DNA of 64,000 bases, taken from NCBI GenBank assembly GCA_017466345.1, contig JAFTUI010000007.1, positions 62,001 through 126,000 of the forward strand, read 5' to 3'. Under the pieces are notes generated by a model. That model saw nothing but the letters and a program-made list of their open reading frames with translations. It was not told the origin of the DNA and made no database searches. The position numbers were made by a program, and so were the translations under genes. Below, one piece after another: positions 5,306 to 43,666 of the stretch. The stretch comes from Tidjanibacter sp. GTDB taxonomy: Bacteria > Bacteroidota > Bacteroidia > Bacteroidales > Rikenellaceae. The stretch's first letter is position 1. The number at the start of each line of letters is the position of its first letter.

Positions 5306-5344
5306 GGTTTCTTTCTTCGATTTTCATTTTGTGATTTTCTTCTC

Positions 5345-5996
5345 CACTTTTTGTAAAAAGCGGAACCAAAAACTTTTAGTGTAGCCTTTGCGGTGGTGTG
5401 ACTGCCTTGCGGCAGGTCTGAAATGAGCAAACCACCAATCTCTTTCAAACAAGTTTGAGAGATGGTGTTTTCCTCATTTCTGCTCCTTCGGAGCATTCCA
5501 CACCACCGAAAAAAGACTCCTCTCAAAAACTCCCCTGCAATCCCTGTTACCCCTGCTACCCTTGTTATCCCTGCAAGAAAAACAAGATAGGTAGATGCCA
5601 ACCGCCTGCCTATGGCAGTCGTGGCAAGACGGACAGACCTCTCCCCCGCTTTGCGGACCCTCCCCTAACTTAGGGGAGGGTGCAAGGATTGCAGGGATAA
5701 CAGGGTATTAAGGACGTTAAGGTCACTAAGGTCATTAAAGTCCTTAAACTCCTTAAATTCCCATAAGCCCTATAAGCCTTATATGCCCTATATGCCTTAG
5801 GACTATTGACGTTAGACCAAAATTCCCAGCGAGTGGGTTTTGTGAGGTGATTTTTGTGCCACAATTCCCAACCTGCGGGTGATTTATGTGAGGCGAGTTC
5901 AAGGCTTGCGCAGCGCGAGAAAGCGGAGTTTACAAAAGTAAATGAGCATTTCGAGCGCAAGCGTAACGCAGCAGATGCGGTGCGAGATGTGCTCGC
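5345..5996 (+). repeat. Composite intergenic cassette, copy A
   Basis: This fills the 757-bp gap between convergent recO and the susE/F-like gene. In order: an imperfect hairpin around TTTTTGTAAAAAG (5345-5364); conserved AACCAAAAACTTTTAGTG; a cloverleaf with a 10-bp closing stem CGGTGGTGTG (5391-5400) to CACACCACCG (5499-5508), holding hairpins CTGCC-TTGC-GGCAG, one with apex TTCAAACAAGTTTGA, and TGCTCC-TTC-GGAGCA; a 9-bp array (5533-5576); its inverted counterpart (5682-5706) after a TCCCCTAACTTAGGGGA palindrome; further 9-bp arrays (5705-5800); then the second palindromic module with arms CTTGCGC (5905-5911) and GCGCAAG (5955-5961) around GTTTAC/GTAAAT. No gene is credible here. Confidence 0.75.
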
Positions 5997-26930: not shown

Positions 26931-27190
26931 GCTTTTTCTCCGCTTTTTGTAAAAAGCGGAACCAAAAACTTTTAGTGCAGCCTTCGCGTGGAGAGAGATG
27001 TGTCTGCTTTACAGCAGTTCTTAAAACAGAACGCCACCGCCACCTTCAAACAAGTTTGAGTGGCGGTGGTGTCCTATTTTATGCTCTTCTCGCGAAGAGC
27101 AACACATCCCCCTCCCCGAAAAAAGGCATCTCTCAAACTCACTCTGTTATCCTTGCAATCCCTGTTACCCCTGCTACCCTTGCGAGAAAA
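26931..27190 (+). repeat. Composite intergenic cassette, copy B
   Basis: It opens with a perfect 20-nt palindrome, arms CCGCTTTTTG/TAAAAAGCGG (26940-26959), then AACCAAAAACTTTTAGTGCA. The cloverleaf closing stem is GATGTGT (26997-27003) to ACACATC (27102-27108), extended by GGAG/CTCC. Inner hairpins are CTGCT-TTAC-AGCAG (27004-27017), a long arm CACCGCCAC...GTGGCGGTG with the invariant TTCAAACAAGTTTGAG apex, and GCTCTTC-TCGC-GAAGAGC (27083-27100). Every stem differs in sequence from copy A yet still pairs. A 9-bp array of GTTACCCCT/GCTACCCTT type ends the copy. Confidence 0.75.
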
Positions 27191-27442: not shown

Positions 27443-27488
27443 TATTCTCCACAAGAAAAGGACAACCTTTCGGGTTGTCCTTTCTTCG

Positions 27489-27497
<9 letters not shown>
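27443..27497 (-). terminator. tRNA-Ala terminator extended by a mirrored acceptor strand
   Basis: On the minus strand GGACAACC-CGAAA-GGTTGTCC runs into TTTTCTT directly after the tRNA, a standard terminator. The stem then continues: the tRNA 3' strand TATTCTCCAC is matched by GTGGAGAATA beyond the T-run (27443-27452). A read-through transcript could therefore pull the acceptor 3' strand out of the tRNA fold. Confidence 0.7.
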
Positions 27498-27562
<65 letters not shown>

Positions 27563-30450: not shown

Positions 30451-30727
30451 CTCCGCTTTTTGTAAAAAGCGTCCTTTTTCGCACCTTTTTGTAAAAAGGT
30501 GCTACCAAAAACTTTTAGTGCACCCATACGGTGAGGTGTGGCTGCCTTTGCAGGCAGATTAGCTGTCAAAACAATAGCCCTCTTTCAAACAAGTTTGAGA
30601 GGGCTATTCTTTTGCCCGCCACTCTCCTTCGGAGAGCCCCACACCTCCCCGAAAAAGGCTTCCCTCAAACCATCCTTGTAACCCCTGTTATCCCTGCTAT
30701 CCTTGTTACCCCTGCTATCCTTGTTTG
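30451..30727 (+). repeat. Composite intergenic cassette, copy C
   Basis: Two opening hairpins, one imperfect at about 30453 and one perfect at 30481-30502 with arms GCACCTTTTTG/TAAAAAGGTGC, then ACCAAAAACTTTTAGTGCA. Cloverleaf: closing stem GAGGTGTGG (30533-30541) to CCACACCTC (30639-30647), with hairpins CTGCC/GGCAG, TAGCCCTC/GAGGGCTA with the TTCAAACAAGTTTGAG apex, and CTCTCC-TTC-GGAGAG. CCCCGAAAAAGGC follows, then a 9-bp array of GTTACCCCT/GCTATCCTT units (30675-30726). It fills the gap between convergent upp and a small minus-strand gene. Confidence 0.75.
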
Positions 30728-31003: not shown

Positions 31004-31082
31004 AATTTTTTAGTTTTGTTTGAGTTAGTTTATAGTGTTTAGTATTGTTTCATTTCTCCTCTCCCCCTCATAAAAAGGGGTA

Positions 31083-31440
31083 GATGCCCACAAGATGTAC
31101 TTTGAACGAGTTCGTATCGCAAGGCGTGGTATTCTCATCCCTCCCCCCTATAAAAAGTGCATATTGCGGAGCAGATGCAAGGCTTGCGATGGGAGAGGAT
31201 GCGGAGTTTGCCACTCGCAAATGAGCAATCCGAGCCCGAGCGTAACGTAGCAGATGCCCGCAAGATGTACTTTGAACGAGTGCGTATCGCAAGTCGAGGT
31301 ATTCTCATCCCTCCCCCCCTATAAAAAGTGCATATTGCGGAGCAGATGCAAGGCTTGCGATGGGCGAGGATGCGGAGTTTGCCCCTCGCAAATGAGCAAT
31401 CCGAGCCCGAGCGTAACGCAGCAGATGCCCGCAAGATGTA
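31083..31440. repeat. Tandem duplication of a palindromic module beside murA
   Basis: Two units of 170 and 171 bp (31083-31252, 31253-31423) differ at only a few positions; a third partial unit, GATGCCCGCAAGATGTAC, runs up to the murA stop codon. Each unit holds a hairpin TTTGC-CACTC-GCAAA (31207-31221 in unit 1) within arms GGCTTGCG and CCCGAGCG, the layout of the second palindromic module in cassettes A, D and E, where the apex reads GTTTAC/GTAAAT. The unit ends GCGTAACGTAGCAGATGC, as in the other copies. No gene is seen between 31004 and 31444. Confidence 0.75.
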
Positions 31441-31444
31441 CTTT

Positions 31445-33869: not shown

Positions 33870-34856
33870 CTAAGGTAGTTTATTTATCCACACCCTCTCC
33901 ACCAAGAACTCCGCCACCAGCAGCAGCAAAGCCCACAAGAGCCACACACCAAAGAGTTCGTTATGGCGGGTGTAGTTATCGGTCTCGATTTTGGTCTTTT
34001 CGAGTTCGTTTATCTTATTATAGACCTCACGCAGGGTGTTCTTATCCGTAGCGCGGAAGTACTCGCCACCCGTCTTGGCAGCAATATCTGTCAGCGTCTG
34101 CTCGTCAATCTCCACCCTCTGTTGCGAGTAGCGCATCTTACCCCAAGCATCGTAGTAGGGGTAGGGAGCGTAGCCCCTCTTACCCACGCCAATAGTATAT
34201 ACCCTTATGCCATACTCGGCAGCAATCTCGGCAGCCGACAGTGGGGCAATCTGTCCCGCATTATTAACACCATCGGTAAGCAGTATGATAACCTTGCTCT
34301 TAGCCTCCGACTCACGAAGTCTATTGACAGCCGTTGCCAAGCCCATACCTATTGCTGTACCGTCCTCCACAACGCCAAACTCAACCTGCGACAGCAGCGT
34401 CTGTAATGCCGCCTTATCGGTCGTCAGAGGGCTCTGAGTATAGCTCTCGCCCGCAAAGACCACCAAACCTATCCTATCGTTGGGGCGGTCGGCAATAAAC
34501 CTCGCAGCCACATCTTTGGCAGCCGTAAGCCTATCGGGCTCGAAGTCCGCAGCCAGCATAGTACCCGACACATCCAACGACAGCACAATATCAATACCCT
34601 CAACCGTTGTCTTGCTCAGTTGCTCGGTGGTCTGAGGACGAGCCAAAGCCACCACAATCATTGCCACAGCCGCACATCTCAGCACAAAAGGCAGATGTCT
34701 GCACCACGAGCGCAATGTGCGAGGAGCACCACTCAGCATCCCCACATTCGACACCCTCAGCGAAGCACCACCAGCCCGCTCGCGCCACAAGTAGTATCCC
34801 ACCATCGGCACAAGCAGCAACAATAACCACAACATCTTCGGACTTGCAAACTCCAT
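33870..34856 (-). CDS. batA: BatA-type von Willebrand factor A membrane protein
   Basis: 328 residues with the same layout as its neighbour: membrane segments at about 8-24 and 57-72, a VWA domain with DVSGT MIDAS, VEDGTAIGMG and LLTDGVNNAG, and a C-terminal membrane segment (LFGVWLLWALLLLVAEFLV). BatA and BatB are paralogues that probably work together. The start lies about 25 nt from the opening hairpin of cassette D, which separates it from batC, so it may be transcribed independently of the genes upstream. Confidence 0.88.
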   Translation of the reverse strand: MEFASPKMLWLLLLLVPMVGYYLWRERAGGASLRVSNVGMLSGAPRTLRSWCRHLPFVLRCAAVAMIVVALARPQTTEQLSKTTVEGIDIVLSLDVSGTMLAADFEPDRLTAAKDVAARFIADRPNDRIGLVVFAGESYTQSPLTTDKAALQTLLSQVEFGVVEDGTAIGMGLATAVNRLRESEAKSKVIILLTDGVNNAGQIAPLSAAEIAAEYGIRVYTIGVGKRGYAPYPYYDAWGKMRYSQQRVEIDEQTLTDIAAKTGGEYFRATDKNTLREVYNKINELEKTKIETDNYTRHNELFGVWLLWALLLLVAEFLVERVWINKLP

Positions 34857-34881
34857 ATTTTTCTTTTTCTCTTTTTCTTTT

Positions 34882-35444
34882 GCGACTTTTTATAAAAAGT
34901 CGCCTTTTTCGCACCTTTTTGTAAAAAGGTGCTACCAAAAACTTTTAGTGCACCAACCAATTGTGGTACTACCTACCGCTTTGCTTAGGAGTGGCTTCGG
35001 AGCCACCTGCACAAGAGCGTCACTCTGACGCCTTTGCGGTAAGGTGTGGCTATCTTTCGCAGATAGTCTGGCAGTCGAACTGCCAGCCCACTTTCAAACG
35101 AGTTTGAGTGGGCTGACACTTCGCCCGCCTCTCTCCTTCGGAGAGCCTCGCACCTCCCCGAAAAAACTTCTCTCAAACTCCTACTTATATATGCCCCATA
35201 TGCCTTATAAGCCATATAAGCCTTAGGACTATTGACGTTAGACGTTAGACCAAAATTCCCTGCGAGTGGGTTTTGTGGAGGGATTTTTGCGCCACAATTC
35301 CCAACCTGCGGGTGATTTATGTGAGGCGAGTTCAAGGCTTGCGCAGCGCGAGAGAGCGGAGTTTACAAAAGTAAATGAGCATTTCGAGCGCAAGCGTAAC
35401 GCAGAAATCGCCCACAGAAATCAGCCGCACACAAGGCACGCTCG
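34882..35444 (+). repeat. Composite intergenic cassette, copy D
   Basis: The 588-bp gap between batA and batC is almost entirely cassette. Palindromes: GCGACTTTTTA/TAAAAAGTCGC (34882-34903) and GCACCTTTTTG/TAAAAAGGTGC (34911-34932). An extra arm follows with ACCA-ATTG-TGGT, GTGGCT-TCGG-AGCCAC and GCGTCA-CTC-TGACGC. Cloverleaf: closing stem GGTGTG to CGCACC, hairpins CTATC/GATAG, an extra CTGGCAGT-CGA-ACTGCCAG, CCCAC...GTGGG with the TTTCAAACGAGTTTGAG apex, and CTCTCC-TTC-GGAGAG. Then a 9-bp array (35186-35250) with GACGTTAGA units, and the second palindromic module (arms CTTGCGC 35338-35344 and GCGCAAG 35388-35394), which ends at the batC stop codon. Confidence 0.75.
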
Positions 35445-36203
35445 CTACCAGTTCTTGCCGGAGCGTGGCATCATAACCGCAGCCTTCTCGCCATCCACCT
35501 TCTCGCGAGTCTTATCCTCGGCAGCCTGCACAGCATCGAGCATCTGCTCGCTCTCTGGTCGGGGTGCGGGGGTCTCCTGAGGCTCCTCATCCTGGTCGCT
35601 CGGCTCAGGTTTCTCGCCCTGTTGGTCCTCAGGTTGGGGTTGCTCGTTGGGGTTCTGTTCCTTGTCGCCCTTCTCGTCATCCTCGCCGCCTTCGGACTGC
35701 TGGTTTTGGTTATTTTGGTTGTTCTGGTTGTTCTGTTGGTTTTGGTCGTTGTTCTGCTGGTTCTCCATCATAGCCTTGGTGTAGGCGTAGTTGAACTTAG
35801 CCTCCATATCCTTGGGGTTGAGCCTCAGGGATGATTTGTACGACTCCAAAGCCTCCTCCAACTTCTGCTGTTGGAACTGCGCATTGCCGAGGTTGTAGAG
35901 TGTTTTTGCCTTTACCTCATCCGAAAGGTTGGGGTATTCGGAGAGTTCGCGGAAGGTGTTCTCGGCACTCTCGAAGTCGCCCATAGCGTATTGTGAGTCG
36001 CCGAGGTTGAACTTACCCTCCACCGAGGCAGCATCTTTTTGGAGCGCTGTGCGGTACTCCTTCTGCGCCTCCTCCATACGTTGCTCCTCGTAGAGTGAGT
36101 TACCCCTGCGGACGTGTTTGCGTTCGGGGTATTTTTGACCATAGGCTGTCGTTGCTACGAAGAGAGCAAGCAGTGGCAACAGGTATTTCAGAACTCTACT
36201 CAT
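35445..36203 (-). CDS. batC: BatC-type tetratricopeptide-repeat protein
   Basis: 252 residues from the start chosen at 36203: signal peptide MSRVLKYLLPLLALFVATTAYGQ, TPR repeats about 30-145 (RRGNSLYEEQRMEEAQKEYRTAL, VEGKFNLGDSQYAMGDFESAE, TLYNLGNAQFQQQKLEEALESY), then a low-complexity tail rich in Gln/Asn (ENQQNNDQNQQNNQNNQNNQ) and in Glu/Pro. The N-terminus overlaps the end of the upstream gene by 8 bp, supporting co-transcription. An in-frame start farther upstream would add a basic, non-conserved segment and was not used. The stop codon touches the palindromic module of cassette D. Confidence 0.85.
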   Translation of the reverse strand: MSRVLKYLLPLLALFVATTAYGQKYPERKHVRRGNSLYEEQRMEEAQKEYRTALQKDAASVEGKFNLGDSQYAMGDFESAENTFRELSEYPNLSDEVKAKTLYNLGNAQFQQQKLEEALESYKSSLRLNPKDMEAKFNYAYTKAMMENQQNNDQNQQNNQNNQNNQNQQSEGGEDDEKGDKEQNPNEQPQPEDQQGEKPEPSDQDEEPQETPAPRPESEQMLDAVQAAEDKTREKVDGEKAAVMMPRSGKNW

Positions 36204-37209
36204 CTGCTCCCTCCTTTCTCTCCTCGGCGACAACACCTTCGATGTTTTGCGCCTCGGGGGCGACAACCTCCTCCTTAATCTCCTTGCTCTCCTCCACGAA
36301 GTAGTAGACCATATTGTAGTACTCCTCGTGGCTCTCCTCCGAGGGGGTATATTTCGCAAATTTCACAAGGTCGCTCTCGGCGAGCAGTGAGCCGAGGTTG
36401 GCTGTGTGTTTAGGCTCAACCTCTGCCGCCTTCATTGCCGAGAGAATCTCGTCAGTGGTCATCTCCATAGCTCCCACACCATAACGCCCTGCGAGGTACT
36501 CCCTGAGAATCTCCGTAAGGCGGGTATAGTACTCCTTAATCTTTCCGTTCTGCCACAATTTCTGGTTGTGGAGCATCTCCAAGTGTCGTATTGCCACAAC
36601 GTGTGGGGGTTCTCTGCGCTCCTCTGTGGTCTGTTTTCTCTTCCTTAGGCGCGAGAGCACCAGCAGCACCAAGCCTGCCACAACAGCCGCCACACCCAAG
36701 CCAGCAAGCGTATAGCCGCCCACCTCGCCAAGTTTCAAGGGTGCTTTGAGGGGTTGTTTGATGTCGTAGATGGTCTTTTGTGCTGTATCTACGGGCATCA
36801 TCTGCACCTGCAAATGTAGTGGTTCCGAAGCGAAAAGGGTGTCCACCCTCACACCGTCAGTATAGAGCACTGCGAGCGAGTCGAGGCTATACATTGCGGG
36901 CTCAAAAGAGGTCATACGCCACCTCTTGCGCAGCTGAATACTACCCTCGGCAAGCTTTGTGGTATCCAACTTTCTCTCTTCGAGAAGTTCTATCTTGCCC
37001 TCGGCAAACTCGGAGGTTATAGAGGGGAAGCCCACACCATAGCCCTCGGGAGCAGCAACCTCCAACACAAGGTCGAAGTGGTCGCCTAAGAGCACACTAT
37101 CGGGCTCAAACCTTGCACCAACAATCTCCACACCCCTCTGTGCGGCAGCAGCAAACACCACTCCCACACTCATACACAGCGCAATAATATATCTTTTCAA
37201 CCCTCTCAT
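36196..37209 (-). CDS. Bat-operon membrane protein, function unknown
   Basis: 337 residues: signal peptide (about 1-23, ending AAAAQ), a periplasmic beta-sandwich-like domain about 25-150 (FEPDSVLLGDHFDLVLEV), one membrane segment about 168-186 (YTLAGLGVAAVVAGLVLLVL) and a cytoplasmic helical domain (HNQKLWQNGKIKEYYTRLTE, GVGAMEMTTDEIL). Proteins of this layout usually sit between the DUF58 gene and batA in Bacteroidetes Bat operons. It is not the larger BatD. It starts directly after the DUF58 gene and overlaps batC by 8 bp. Confidence 0.75.
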   Translation of the reverse strand: MRGLKRYIIALCMSVGVVFAAAAQRGVEIVGARFEPDSVLLGDHFDLVLEVAAPEGYGVGFPSITSEFAEGKIELLEERKLDTTKLAEGSIQLRKRWRMTSFEPAMYSLDSLAVLYTDGVRVDTLFASEPLHLQVQMMPVDTAQKTIYDIKQPLKAPLKLGEVGGYTLAGLGVAAVVAGLVLLVLSRLRKRKQTTEERREPPHVVAIRHLEMLHNQKLWQNGKIKEYYTRLTEILREYLAGRYGVGAMEMTTDEILSAMKAAEVEPKHTANLGSLLAESDLVKFAKYTPSEESHEEYYNMVYYFVEESKEIKEEVVAPEAQNIEGVVAEERKEGADE

Positions 37210-38091
37210 CTATCGTCTTTTGAAGAGTTTGATAAGTTCCTTAACATAGTCTTCCTCGGTGGTCACATCGGCGTGGTCTACCCTTACGCGGGCGAGAATC
37301 TTATCCATAGCCTCGTGGCGGGCGTTCCACTGTGCGGCGTAGTGTTCCCTCGCTGCCCTCGAAGAGGTGTCGACAAACATACGGCGACCGCTCTCCAAGT
37401 CCTCCATCTCCACCAAGCCCACATCGGGCAGTTCGGCATCCCTCGGGTCATAGACCTTAATACCCACAATATCGTGTTTGCCCGAAGCGATACCCAGCAC
37501 CTTCGAGAGTCGTTCGTCCTCACTTGCGGGAGTGTCGAAGTCGCTCAGCACAAAGGTCGTACTGCGCTTTTTCAGCACCGCTGTGAGGTACTCCAAAGGC
37601 ACCACCAGCGAGGTCGCTTTGCTCTCGGGCTCAAACTCCAAAAGAGTGCTGATAATCCTGAGGATATGTGAGCGACCTTTCTTGGGAGGTATGAACTTCT
37701 CCACCCTATCGCTGAACAGCAAGCAGCCCACCTTATCGTTATTCTGGGCTGCCGAGAACGCCAGCACAGCCGCAATCTCGGTCATCACCGCACGCTTCGT
37801 CTTATCGCCCGAGCCAAATGCCCCCGAGCCACTGACATCGACCATCAGCATCATCGTCAGCTCACGCTCCTCCTCATAGATTTTGATGTGGGGCTTGCGC
37901 ATACGGGCAGTGACATTCCAGTCTATATCCCTCACATCATCACCCACACGGTACTCCCTAACCTCGCTGAACGACACACCCCTGCCACGGAAAGCACTAT
38001 GGTAGTGTCCGGCAAAAATGTCGTTGGAGAGTCCGCGAGTCTTAATCTCTATCTTTCGGACCTGTTTGAGTATGTCTGATGTCTCCTTCAA
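37210..38091 (-). CDS. DUF58 domain protein of the Bat operon
   Basis: About 293 residues from a TTG start at 38091. Conserved N-terminus TSDILKQVRKIEIKTRGLSN, then the DUF58 core FRGRGVSFSEVREYRVGDD-x-RDIDWNVTARM and a VWA-like fold with MVDVSGSGAFG and VLSDFD. DUF58 proteins accompany MoxR ATPases. The start is uncertain: relatives begin with Met where this gene has Lys (AAG), two residues after the TTG. The only upstream in-frame ATG, at 38229, lies inside cassette E and would add 46 repeat-encoded residues (such as STTIGWCTKSFWFRF). TTG, or a lost ATG with altered initiation, is more likely. Confidence 0.8.
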   Translation of the reverse strand: MKETSDILKQVRKIEIKTRGLSNDIFAGHYHSAFRGRGVSFSEVREYRVGDDVRDIDWNVTARMRKPHIKIYEEERELTMMLMVDVSGSGAFGSGDKTKRAVMTEIAAVLAFSAAQNNDKVGCLLFSDRVEKFIPPKKGRSHILRIISTLLEFEPESKATSLVVPLEYLTAVLKKRSTTFVLSDFDTPASEDERLSKVLGIASGKHDIVGIKVYDPRDAELPDVGLVEMEDLESGRRMFVDTSSRAAREHYAAQWNARHEAMDKILARVRVDHADVTTEEDYVKELIKLFKRR

Positions 38092-38117
38092 TTTGTTCTT
38101 ATTTTTCTTCGCTTTCT

Positions 38118-38646
38118 CCGCTTTTTGTAAAAAGCGGAACCAAAAACTTTTAGTGCACCAACCAATAGTGGTACTACCTACCGCTTTGCTTAGGAGTGGC
38201 TTTGGAGCCACTTGCACTTTGAGCATCACTCTGACGCCTTGCGGTGAGGTGTGACTGCCTTTACGGGCAGATTAACAGCCAAAATAGCAGCCCTCCTTCA
38301 AACAAGTTTGAGAGGGCTCCTATTTCGTCTGCCACTCTCCTTCGGAGAGCCTCACACCTCCCCGAAAAAGCATTCTCTCAAACTCCCACATATTGCTCCC
38401 CTAAGTTAGGGGAGCGGTCGCAACGCGACTGAGGGGTATGTTTCCTGTATGCCTTATATGCCCTATAAGCCCTATAAGACTAAGGACTCTTGACGTTAGA
38501 CGTTAGACGTTAGACCCTAAAACCGCGAGTGCATATCGTGTGGCGAGTTCAAGGCTTGGTTTTGATTTTGCTCCGCAGTTTACAAATGGTAAATGAGGAA
38601 GCAAAATCAAAAGCATAACGCAGAAATCGCCCACGAGATGTGCTCG
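38118..38646 (+). repeat. Composite intergenic cassette, copy E
   Basis: This fills the gap between the DUF58 gene and moxR. It opens with palindrome CCGCTTTTTG/TAAAAAGCGG (38118-38137), then the extra arm with GTGGCT-TTGG-AGCCAC. Cloverleaf closing stem GAGGTGTG to CACACCTC, hairpins CTGCC/GGCAG, AGCCCTC/GAGGGCT with the TTCAAACAAGTTTGAG apex, and CTCTCC-TTC-GGAGAG. A TCCCCTAAGTTAGGGGA palindrome (38397-38413), a 9-bp array (38446-38515) ending in three GACGTTAGA units, and the second module with a perfect 13-bp stem TTTTGATTTTGCT (38560-38572) to AGCAAAATCAAAA (38600-38612) around GTTTAC/GTAAAT. It ends at the moxR stop codon. Confidence 0.75.
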
Positions 38647-39645
38647 CTAAGGTACCTCTACGGCGTTCAGTATCTCCGTAATAATCTCCTCAGTGGTAAC
38701 ATTCTCCGCCTCAGCCTCGTAGGACAAGCCTATACGGTGGCGCAGAACATCGTGGCACATAGCCCTCACATCCTCGGGGATGACGTAGCCCCTATGTTTG
38801 ATGAAGGCGTAAGCCTTAGATGCCTTAGCCAATGCGATACTTGCACGGGGCGAAGCGCCATACGAAATCATAGGCGAGAGTTTCGACAGACCATATTCGG
38901 CGGGTTCGCGGGTGGCAAAGATGATGTCGACAATATACTTCTCGATCTTCTCGTCCATATAGACATCGCTCACAACCTTACGAGCCCTCACAATATCCTC
39001 GGGAGTTACTACCTTCTGCACCTCGGGCATACCCTCGCCGGCAAGGTTGAGCCTTACAATATCGCGCTCCTCCTGGCGTTTGGGGTAGGAGATTTTGGCT
39101 TTGAGCATAAACCTATCGACCTGAGCCTCGGGCAGAGGATAGGTACCCTCCTGCTCGATGGGGTTCTGGGTAGCCATAACGAGGAAGGGCTCGGGAAGAG
39201 CAAAGGTCTCCTCGCCGATAGTTACCTGTCGCTCCTGCATAGCCTCCAAAAGCGCACTCTGCACCTTTGCGGGCGAGCGGTTAATCTCATCCGCCAAAAC
39301 AAAATTGGCAAAGATGGGACCTTTTTTTACGGTGAACTCCTCGTTCTTCTGGGAGTAAATCAAGGTGCCCACAAGGTCGGCAGGCAGCAAATCGGGCGTA
39401 AACTGCACCCTACTAAACTTAGCATCCACAGCCTTCGAGAGTGTGGTGATAGCCAAGGTCTTAGCCAAGCCGGGGACACCCTCCAAAAGGATGTGACCGC
39501 CCGTAAGCAAGCCAATAATCAGAGTATCGACAAGGTGGCGCTGACCCACAATCACACGACCCATCTCCATCGACAGCGAGTCCACAAACAGACTCTCCTT
39601 CTCGATACGTTCATTCAGTTCTTTGATGTTAATAATCTCGCTCAT
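38647..39645 (-). CDS. moxR: MoxR-family AAA+ ATPase
   Basis: 332 residues from the ATG at 39645, chosen because MSEIINIKELNERI starts like relatives; an in-frame ATG 60 nt upstream adds a non-conserved segment. Walker A GGHILLEGVPGLAKT, Walker B FVLADEINRSPAKVQSALLEAMQE, sensor 1 FLVMATQNPIEQEGTYPLPEAQ, and the C-terminal lid (LSPMISYGASPRASIALAKA). MoxR chaperone-like ATPases work with DUF58 and VWA proteins such as BatA/B. First gene of the Bat operon, with a promoter-like TAACTTTG upstream. Confidence 0.93.
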   Translation of the reverse strand: MSEIINIKELNERIEKESLFVDSLSMEMGRVIVGQRHLVDTLIIGLLTGGHILLEGVPGLAKTLAITTLSKAVDAKFSRVQFTPDLLPADLVGTLIYSQKNEEFTVKKGPIFANFVLADEINRSPAKVQSALLEAMQERQVTIGEETFALPEPFLVMATQNPIEQEGTYPLPEAQVDRFMLKAKISYPKRQEERDIVRLNLAGEGMPEVQKVVTPEDIVRARKVVSDVYMDEKIEKYIVDIIFATREPAEYGLSKLSPMISYGASPRASIALAKASKAYAFIKHRGYVIPEDVRAMCHDVLRHRIGLSYEAEAENVTTEEIITEILNAVEVP

Positions 39646-39723
39646 ATTGTTGTGTTTTATATCTATTTTCTCTCGTTTTTGGTCAGCGCACACGCCACCC
39701 GACAAAGTAAACGTATAGACTCA

Positions 39724-39753: not shown

Positions 39754-40142
39754 GCGACTTTTTATAAAAAGTCGCCTTTTCGCACCTTTTTGTAAAAAGG
39801 TGCTGCCAAAAACTTTTCGTGCACCAACCAATTGTGGTACTACCTGCCGCTTTGCTTAGGAGTGGCTTAGGAGCCACTTGCACAAATGCGTCACTCTGAC
39901 GCCTTTGCGGTGTTGGGATTTCTATTCAGTGTATATAGAGAAAACGAAGAAGAGCAGAAAACGCACAGAGCGGAGGGATTTTTGGCGTCAGAGTGACGCT
40001 TTTATGATGGGATTTCTCCCAACCAAAAAAGCATAACACGAGATGAGAGCAAGGCATACAAGAAAGCGGACTCCGCAGTTTACTTAACGTAAATGAGGAG
40101 TCCGCTTATCGAAGTATAACGTAGCTATCGCTCGTGTTATGC
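39754..40142 (+). repeat. Composite intergenic cassette, copy F, rearranged
   Basis: The opening palindromes (39754-39775; the second at about 39782-39803) and the extra arm with GTGGCT-TAGG-AGCCAC and GCGTCA-CTC-TGACGC match D and E. The cloverleaf is missing: the sequence switches at about 39911 to a different 110-bp segment bounded by TTGGGA and TCCCAA and containing a second, inverted AGCGTCACTCTGACGCC. The second palindromic module follows with an 11-bp stem AAGCGGACTCC (40064-40074) to GGAGTCCGCTT (40097-40107) around GTTTAC/GTAAAT. It merges with the rplQ end. Confidence 0.7.
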
Positions 40143-43396: not shown

Positions 43397-43540
43397 CTTT
43401 GAAAAGTTTTTAATTTAGTTTGTTTTTGTGGCATAATCTCTTCGCCGTAAGGTTTAACCAAAAGTAGCGACTGTCACAGTTCTTTTCTCTCTTTTAGAAA
43501 CCAAAGTCATATTCCCATACGACTCTGCCTTCTCTTGTTG

Positions 43541-43666
43541 CAAACCCAAAGTGCCTTGCACCTCATCTTTGCCCCTTTGTTGCAAACCCAAGGCGCCTTG
43601 CACCTCGTCTTTGCCCCTTTGTTGCAAACCCAAAGTGCCTTGCACCCCGATTTTGCTCTCTTTGCT
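43541..43666. repeat. Three 42-bp tandem repeats between infA and rpmJ
   Basis: Units start at 43541, 43583 and 43625, each CAAACCCAA-rGyGCCTTGCAC followed by a T/C-rich stretch. The period is 14 codons. On the minus strand an open frame (43454-43675, TTG start) reads the repeat as QQRGKDEVQGTLGL. Units 1 and 2 differ by one silent and one Thr/Ala change. GTGC-CTT-GCAC palindromes recur in each. The rest of the 43397-43748 gap holds no recognised feature. Confidence 0.8.

What the first reader, a model, noticed from the sequence alone, without database searches (positions are those of the whole stretch)
5391..5508. Cloverleaf-shaped repeat with compensatory base changes in every stem
Four intact copies in the window (A 5391-5508, B 26997-27108, C 30533-30647, E about 38242-38359; D at about 35042-35155 is close) share one architecture: a closing stem enclosing three hairpins. 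Stem sequences differ but pairing is kept. Hairpin 1: CTGCC/GGCAG, CTGCT/AGCAG, CTATC/GATAG. Hairpin 3: GCTCC/GGAGC, CTCTTC/GAAGAG, CTCTCC/GGAGAG. Closing stem: GGTGTG/CACACC, GATGTGT/ACACATC. The middle arm keeps an invariant TTCAAACAAGTTTGAG apex on a variable stem. This pattern indicates selection on structure, as for a non-coding RNA or a DNA element recognised as a fold. I do not recognise it as a named RNA family.
Basis: seen in the sequence. Interest (0 to 1): 0.85.

Follow-up and report, generated by a model that had tools for sequence, protein, structure and literature searches.

The report
Cloverleaf-folding repeat at gene ends
Gut bacteria related to Alistipes carry many copies of a short non-coding repeat whose sequence keeps changing while its cloverleaf fold is kept, mostly where two genes run towards each other; what spreads it and what it does are unknown.

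Summary
All five window copies fold into a four-way junction (z -5.9 to -9.5). The host genome holds 25 full-length copies. Covariation is very strong: 38 of 42 pairs change on both sides, score 0.862 against 0.194 shuffled and about 0.11 slid. Nothing credible in Rfam.

Corrections and additions. (1) The better-folding strand is the reverse complement of the one read; its hairpins 1 and 3 end in GNA/GNRA loops (156 of 292 loops against 5 of 261). (2) It is a dispersed insertion: copy E splits moxR from a DUF58 gene, and at 4 of 9 orthologous loci another subtype has replaced it. (3) It sits at gene 3' ends: 66 of 99 copies lie between convergent genes, 1 between divergent.

Best reading: a new REP/MITE-like structured repeat without Y1 transposase (0 of 14 element-rich genomes). 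DNA or RNA is open.

The parts
5390..5514 (-). copy A, cloverleaf core (folded strand: minus); between recO (+) and a SusE/F gene (-)
5343..5381 (+). M0 module of copy A (hairpin plus ACCAAAAACTTTTAGTG)
26990..27122 (-). copy B, cloverleaf core; between a pullulanase-like gene (+) and tRNA-Ala 27488-27562 (-)
26939..26977 (+). M0 module of copy B
30528..30655 (-). copy C, cloverleaf core; between a UPRTase gene (+) and an EPSP synthase gene (-)
30481..30520 (+). M0 module of copy C
35036..35164 (-). copy D, cloverleaf core; between a TPR gene and a VWA/BatA gene, both on minus
34911..34950 (+). M0 module of copy D, followed by a further repeat module before the core
38241..38368 (-). copy E, cloverleaf core; splits moxR from a DUF58 gene, both on minus
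38117..38155 (+). M0 module of copy E, followed by a further repeat module before the core
39805..39821 (+). M0 box (2 mismatches) without a cloverleaf match

Best explanation
It is a dispersed, non-autonomous extragenic repeat of about 120-135 bp, usually with a module of about 40 bp (M0) in front, that keeps a cloverleaf fold while its sequence turns over. SHOWN: fold kept with near-complete sequence replacement across species; high and patchy copy number; presence of a copy in an operon junction where relatives have none; replacement of one subtype by another at fixed loci; position at gene 3' ends, mainly between convergent genes; strand-specific hairpin caps on the minus strand. INFERRED: it spreads and is exchanged as a folded single strand, somewhat more likely DNA than RNA, recognised by a trans-acting enzyme that reads the four-way fold and its nearly invariant apex; copies survive where no promoter is hit; template switching during replication helps keep the arms complementary. 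The enzyme is unknown and does not look like a Y1 (REP-type) transposase.
For: Covariation 38 of 42 pairs, 93.9% of cells paired, 0.862 against 0.194 shuffled; on 58 distinct rows 37 of 42, 94.9%, 0.711 against 0.184. GNA/GNRA loops 156 of 292 on minus against 5 of 261 on plus. Minus folds better in 45 of 49 and 40 of 55 cores. Watson-Crick cells 2241 of 2397, G-T only 34 on plus or 58 on minus, which leans to DNA. Patchy: present in 54 of 201 family genomes, often at high copy. Copy E: no cloverleaf in the other 21 genomes whose junction is visible. Subtype replaced at 4 of 9 loci, a chimera at a fifth. 66 of 99 copies convergent, 1 divergent against 33 of 207 and 35 of 207 spacers in own contigs. 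Inverted ends and start 6-35 bases after a stop codon in copies without M0 in G170.
Against: No enzyme found; no target-site duplication or exact empty site established. GNRA loops are also an RNA hallmark. In the own genome 13 (-,-) copies against 1 (+,+) put the folded strand in the mRNA sense, as an RNA function would; this does not hold in the other genus (3 against 8). Spread by ordinary recombination and gene conversion alone could explain the replacements.
Confidence: 0.5

Rival explanations
1. RNA element: the minus strand is transcribed with the right-hand gene or operon, and the four-way junction works in the 3' UTR or between cistrons, protecting or processing mRNA as NEMIS and ERIC RNAs are proposed to do.
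For: Right-hand gene reads into the element in 22 of 24 own copies, 16 of 20 in other genomes and 49 of 57 in a second genus. A terminator-like site lies between gene and element in only 4 of 21 own copies tested, one of them strong. GNRA caps on that strand. ERIC and NEMIS are precedents (PMC2229807, section 5 part 1).
Against: Co-directional copies pooled are 19 (-,-) and 13 (+,+), so no general sense rule. Wobble pairs are scarce: 58 of 2397 cells on minus. Copy A has a strong terminator before it. The left-hand gene is the closer one in the second genus.
Confidence: 0.25
2. No function in the fold: template switching during replication keeps the arms complementary, and gene conversion spreads variants; the cloverleaf is a mutational by-product.
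For: Template switching can create and maintain hairpins and explain multi-base compensatory changes (PMC8794818, abstract read). Hairpin 1 of L068 is the exact reverse complement of that of L067, and the L074 apex is inverted. G-T pairs are rare. A chimeric copy exists.
Against: Template switching should mix loop orientation, but GNA/GNRA loops are on one strand 156 to 5. Three of five apex pairs never vary in 58 rows. Full-length architecture is kept across genera.
Confidence: 0.12
3. Bidirectional transcription end or insulator between convergent genes: the element stops or separates opposing transcription.
For: 46 of 57 copies in the second genus and 66 of 99 overall lie between convergent genes.
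Against: The folds have no T-run directly after them in the copies examined by eye; scans of four window regions put no minus-strand terminator-like site at the core (one plus-strand site falls on the middle arm of C). In G170 at least two copies (L221, L224) follow what looks like a complete terminator. Copies D and E lie between genes of one direction.
Confidence: 0.13

Closest known systems
REP / BIME / REPIN repeats with TnpA_REP (RAYT)
   Same: High-copy extragenic palindromic repeats; folded single strand recognised; loops short and stem sequences varying by family (PMC3733652 passages; PMC8266576 abstract).
   Different: Here 120-135 bp with a four-way junction instead of a single short hairpin; no Y1 transposase in 14 element-rich genomes; G-T pairing scarce, whereas it was often seen in GTAG repeats.
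ERIC, NEMIS/Correia, RUP, CIR and other small mobile repeats
   Same: Size, intergenic position, stem-loop fold closed by paired ends, spread without own enzyme (PMC2229807, section 5 part 1).
   Different: Other phyla; the review text read describes long single stem-loops or two arms, not a closing stem with three arms; near-complete covariation across genera was not described in the text read.
BrickBuilt MITE of Porphyromonas gingivalis (same order)
   Same: Intergenic, composite element of Bacteroidales with internal short tandem repeats and stem-loops (PMC4596501 passages).
   Different: 23-nt repeats and short terminal inverted repeats similar to ISPg elements; no cloverleaf reported in the passages seen. 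Not compared base by base.
Integron attC sites
   Same: Recalled: at gene 3' ends, bottom strand folds, structure kept while sequence varies.
   Different: The elements lie singly among housekeeping genes such as recO, UPRTase and moxR, not in cassette arrays; attC is a single imperfect hairpin (recalled).

Membership tests
REP / RAYT (REPtron) | Cognate Y1 (HUH) transposase in the genome | tested here: not met
   PF01797: 0 of 14 element-rich genomes; 1 of 24 genus genomes, G007, where neither R1 nor R2 finds the element. Genomes are 77-98% complete.
REP / RAYT (REPtron) | Palindrome of 20-40 bp tagged by GTAG or CGTC (PMC3733652 abstract in the listing, passages) | tested here: not met
   Cores are 117-133 bases. 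GTAG precedes some own copies (AGTGTAGCC) but not others (AGTGCAGCC, AGTGCACC); other genera have other letters there.
MITE | Terminal inverted repeats | tested here: met
   The closing stem makes the ends inverted repeats, e.g. GCGGATTTAGG and CCTAAATCCG in G170 copies; it pairs in 97.5% of cells.
MITE | Target-site duplication and a parent transposon | tested here: inconclusive
   The moxR-DUF58 spacers of relatives do not align with the flanks of E; no parent element identified; only PF01797 and PF00078 were searched.
Known Rfam RNA family | Score at or above a family's gathering threshold | tested here: not met
   Whole window: only a tRNA. Ten loci at E up to 5: best on an element mir-290, 34.3 bits against 51.
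Intrinsic terminator | GC-rich hairpin followed at once by a T-run | tested here: inconclusive
   Scans of four window regions (A, C, D, E): no minus-strand site at a core; plus-strand sites at the middle arm of C and at M0 hairpins of C and D. B was not scanned.
ERIC/NEMIS-type co-transcribed repeat | Transcript over the repeat that changes mRNA stability | not testable with these tools
Integron attC | Cassette array and integron integrase | not tested
   Integrase families were not searched; the neighbours of the five window copies are ordinary genes.

The most novel reading that the evidence does not exclude
A mobile family whose substrate is the folded minus strand itself, a four-way junction capped by GNA/GNRA loops and read at its apex by an enzyme unlike Y1 transposases, which both inserts copies at gene ends and swaps one subtype for another at occupied sites (structure-guided cassette exchange).
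Probability: 0.2. Interest if true: 0.85.

Novelty: new variant of a known kind. Interest (0 to 1): 0.62.

Why it matters
It is an abundant, widely distributed, apparently unnamed structured repeat of gut Rikenellaceae, with covariation in nearly every pair, that nevertheless behaves like a repeat population that inserts and replaces itself. It is a natural test case for separating selection on a fold from template-switch maintenance, and for finding what spreads structured repeats where the known REP transposase is missing. Several copies lie at contig ends, so it probably also breaks assemblies of these genomes.

Tried and rejected
Sense-strand 3' UTR rule: strong in the own genome (right-hand gene 22 of 24; 13 (-,-) against 1 (+,+)) but not general (3 against 8), so demoted to a rival. 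Y1 transposase as driver: not supported. Reverse transcriptase as driver: RVT_1 in 4 of 24 genus genomes (G000, G005, G013, G019), not matching element-rich G006, G008, G012; of three RT stretches scanned, those of G000 and G019 hit defence-type RT models best and that of G005 gives weaker mixed RT hits. Phage or plasmid origin: no match of copy E in phages or plasmids by distant blastn; 0 hits of the M0-plus-apex pattern in viral contigs. Replication-strand preference: GC skew in the element's orientation is negative in 23 of 25 own copies, but it is confounded with gene direction. The convergent-gene control inside the fetched loci (46 of 57 against 2 of 70 other spacers) is biased, because a spacer next to a convergent one cannot itself be convergent; I use the own-contig background, which is from another genus. 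Direct-terminator reading: see rivals.

Rows dropped before counts. Antisense matches of the same places. Loci L069, L076, L077 (antisense duplicates), L075 (copy with its right half lost), L082, L084, L086, L089, L092, L096 (same contigs as G006, G008, G012 loci), and the second match in L090. Pattern hits L085, L087, L095 were judged chance from their reading and folds. A5 leaves out L074, L080 and L090. A6 was made from 62 loci: 30 of the 60 second-genus loci, 20 of the 24 other-genome loci, 5 of 25 own, and 7. L044 and L045 (identical) are both counted. The 60 second-genus copies come from five genomes chosen for having many listed hits.

Literature: searches listed no paper that I recognised as describing this element; only open-licence PMC papers are held, and most were seen as listings only.

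Full report
OBSERVATION. The five window copies were read and folded. Each forms a closing stem with three hairpins, with z-scores -9.5, -9.1, -6.8, -5.9 and -6.9 for A to E and no shuffle as good. DNA parameters give the cloverleaf for all five on both strands. In front of each lies a module, M0: a hairpin with CTTTTTGTAAAAAG at its tip and the box ACCAAAAACTTTTAGTG. The box occurs at 47 places in the genome with up to 2 mismatches, 0 for the reversed control. M0 also occurs without a cloverleaf, and in other genomes in tandem and in inverted pairs.

EXTENT. A covariance model from 19 own copies (R1) finds 25 full-length places in the own genome; L044 and L045 are identical, so 24 distinct cores. 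R1 finds the element in 10 of 61 genomes, own included. A model from 23 diverse copies (R2) finds it in 54 of 201 genomes of the family and 6 of 22 genera, own included. At most 17 candidates were scored per genome and 11 genomes reach 17, so copy counts there are lower bounds. In the wider order 5 of 295 genomes match, own included; of the other four, L236 has the full cloverleaf, the rest are less clear. Named records from a pattern scan are Tidjanibacter, Alistipes and other Rikenellaceae MAGs, mostly from animal guts (lineages).

STRUCTURE. On the 23-row alignment 93.9% of cells pair, 38 of 42 pairs have two-sided changes, and the covariation score is 0.862 against 0.194 shuffled and 0.106-0.128 slid. 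On 58 distinct rows: 94.9%, 37 of 42, 0.711 against 0.184 shuffled and 0.070-0.109 slid. Three of the five apex pairs never vary. Both alignments were fitted to the model's structure and lean towards it, and the shuffle ignores relatedness; R-scape could not be run.

STRAND. Its terminal loops are GNA or GNRA in 69 of 134 and 87 of 158 cases, most of the rest being the CTTG/CTCG apex; the other strand has 2 of 126 and 3 of 135. Of 2397 pair cells 2241 are Watson-Crick, 34 are G-T on plus and 58 are A-C on plus, that is G-T on minus (the excess on minus sits largely at two positions). The shortage of G-T and the many GNA triloops lean to DNA; GNRA loops fit RNA as well. That RNA helices usually hold more G-U, and that GNA loops are unusually stable in DNA, is recalled.

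POSITION. Gene calls are my own codon-usage predictions. In the own genome the right-hand gene reads towards the element in 22 of 24 copies and the left-hand gene in 10 of 25; in other genomes 16 of 20 and 18 of 21. Of 60 copies from five genomes of a second genus, fetched as a further test, the left-hand gene reads towards it in 57 of 60 and the right-hand gene in 49 of 57. Of the 99 copies with both neighbours called, 66 are convergent, 19 (-,-), 13 (+,+) and 1 divergent, the last weakly called. Own-contig background: 33 convergent, 139 co-directional, 35 divergent spacers of at least 30 bases. Eight M0 boxes without a cloverleaf all have the right-hand gene reading towards them. So the sense-strand rule of the own genome does not generalise; the gene-end rule does.

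EVOLUTION. Copy E lies between moxR and a DUF58 gene. Of 24 genus genomes, 22 show this junction and 2 (G010, G023) are cut before it. R2 finds the element only in the own genome. From stop codon to the start of the protein match, 16 relatives have about 10-125 bases; G003, G013 and G017 about 216-252; G019 (250) and G005 (343) carry an M0-like stretch without the cloverleaf (partly from the printed sequences). At 9 loci with both flanks matched between genomes, 4 hold a different subtype in one genome (cores 64-78% identical, flanks 84-95%), one holds a chimera (88%), and the other 4 have cores at least 97% identical (13 pairs). Subtypes therefore replace each other in place. L067 and L068 differ by an exact reversal of hairpin 1, and L074 has an inverted apex, as template switching would give (PMC8794818, abstract).

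MECHANISM. Most likely a REP/MITE-like repeat whose folded strand is recognised, DNA somewhat more likely than RNA. Not shown: the enzyme, the intermediate, any effect on the host. Among 11 G170 copies fetched, 9 lack M0; they begin soon after a stop codon (6-35 bases in seven of them) or after what looks like a complete terminator, and have inverted ends. Y1 transposases were found in 1 of 24 genus genomes and 0 of 14 element-rich ones.

COMPARISON. It works like the small mobile repeats reviewed in PMC2229807 (section 5 part 1 read) and like REPs, but fails two REP-defining tests (see membership). Searches listed no paper I recognised as describing it. PMC8040213 (passages) lists palindromic candidates in Bacteroidetes that were not compared base by base, so overlap with an unnamed candidate there cannot be excluded.

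Noticed in passing
window 5532-5576, 5727-5799, 30683-30725, 38444-38515: Short tandem arrays of 9-bp and 7-bp units (CCCTGTTAC, ATAAGCCCT, GACGTTA) follow the elements; similar arrays follow copies in other genomes.
   Followed up: partly
window 31082-31444: A 171-bp unit repeated about twice (95% matches) between copy C and the EPSP synthase gene.
   Followed up: no
window 33870-39705: moxR, DUF58, TPR and VWA/BatA genes, recalled as one Bat-type operon in relatives, are split here by copies D and E.
   Followed up: partly
L236, L237, L238 (other families of the order): Element-like matches lie right beside tRNA genes (Ser, Thr, Ser); L236 and L237 also show a partial repeat of the tRNA 3' end on the far side. 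In L237 the match overlaps the tRNA.
   Followed up: partly
G021 (L122-L135), G013 (L141): M0 alone forms tandem units of about 91 and 106 bp and inverted pairs around a small hairpin; the M0 pattern has 51 matches in G021.
   Followed up: partly
L018 and L030 (own genome): Truncated elements that join another module to the right end of the cloverleaf at a shared CTTCGGAG, as recombination between hairpins would give.
   Followed up: no
L159, G000:C14:118193-118777 (-): A reverse transcriptase whose best PADLOC models are RT-Protease and RT-TIR defence types.
   Followed up: partly
window 6034-6002 (-): A strong terminator-like hairpin (14 pairs, T-run) just after the SusE/F gene, so copy A probably lies beyond the end of that transcript.
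   Followed up: no
window 43535-43664: A 42-bp tandem repeat of about 3 copies.
   Followed up: no
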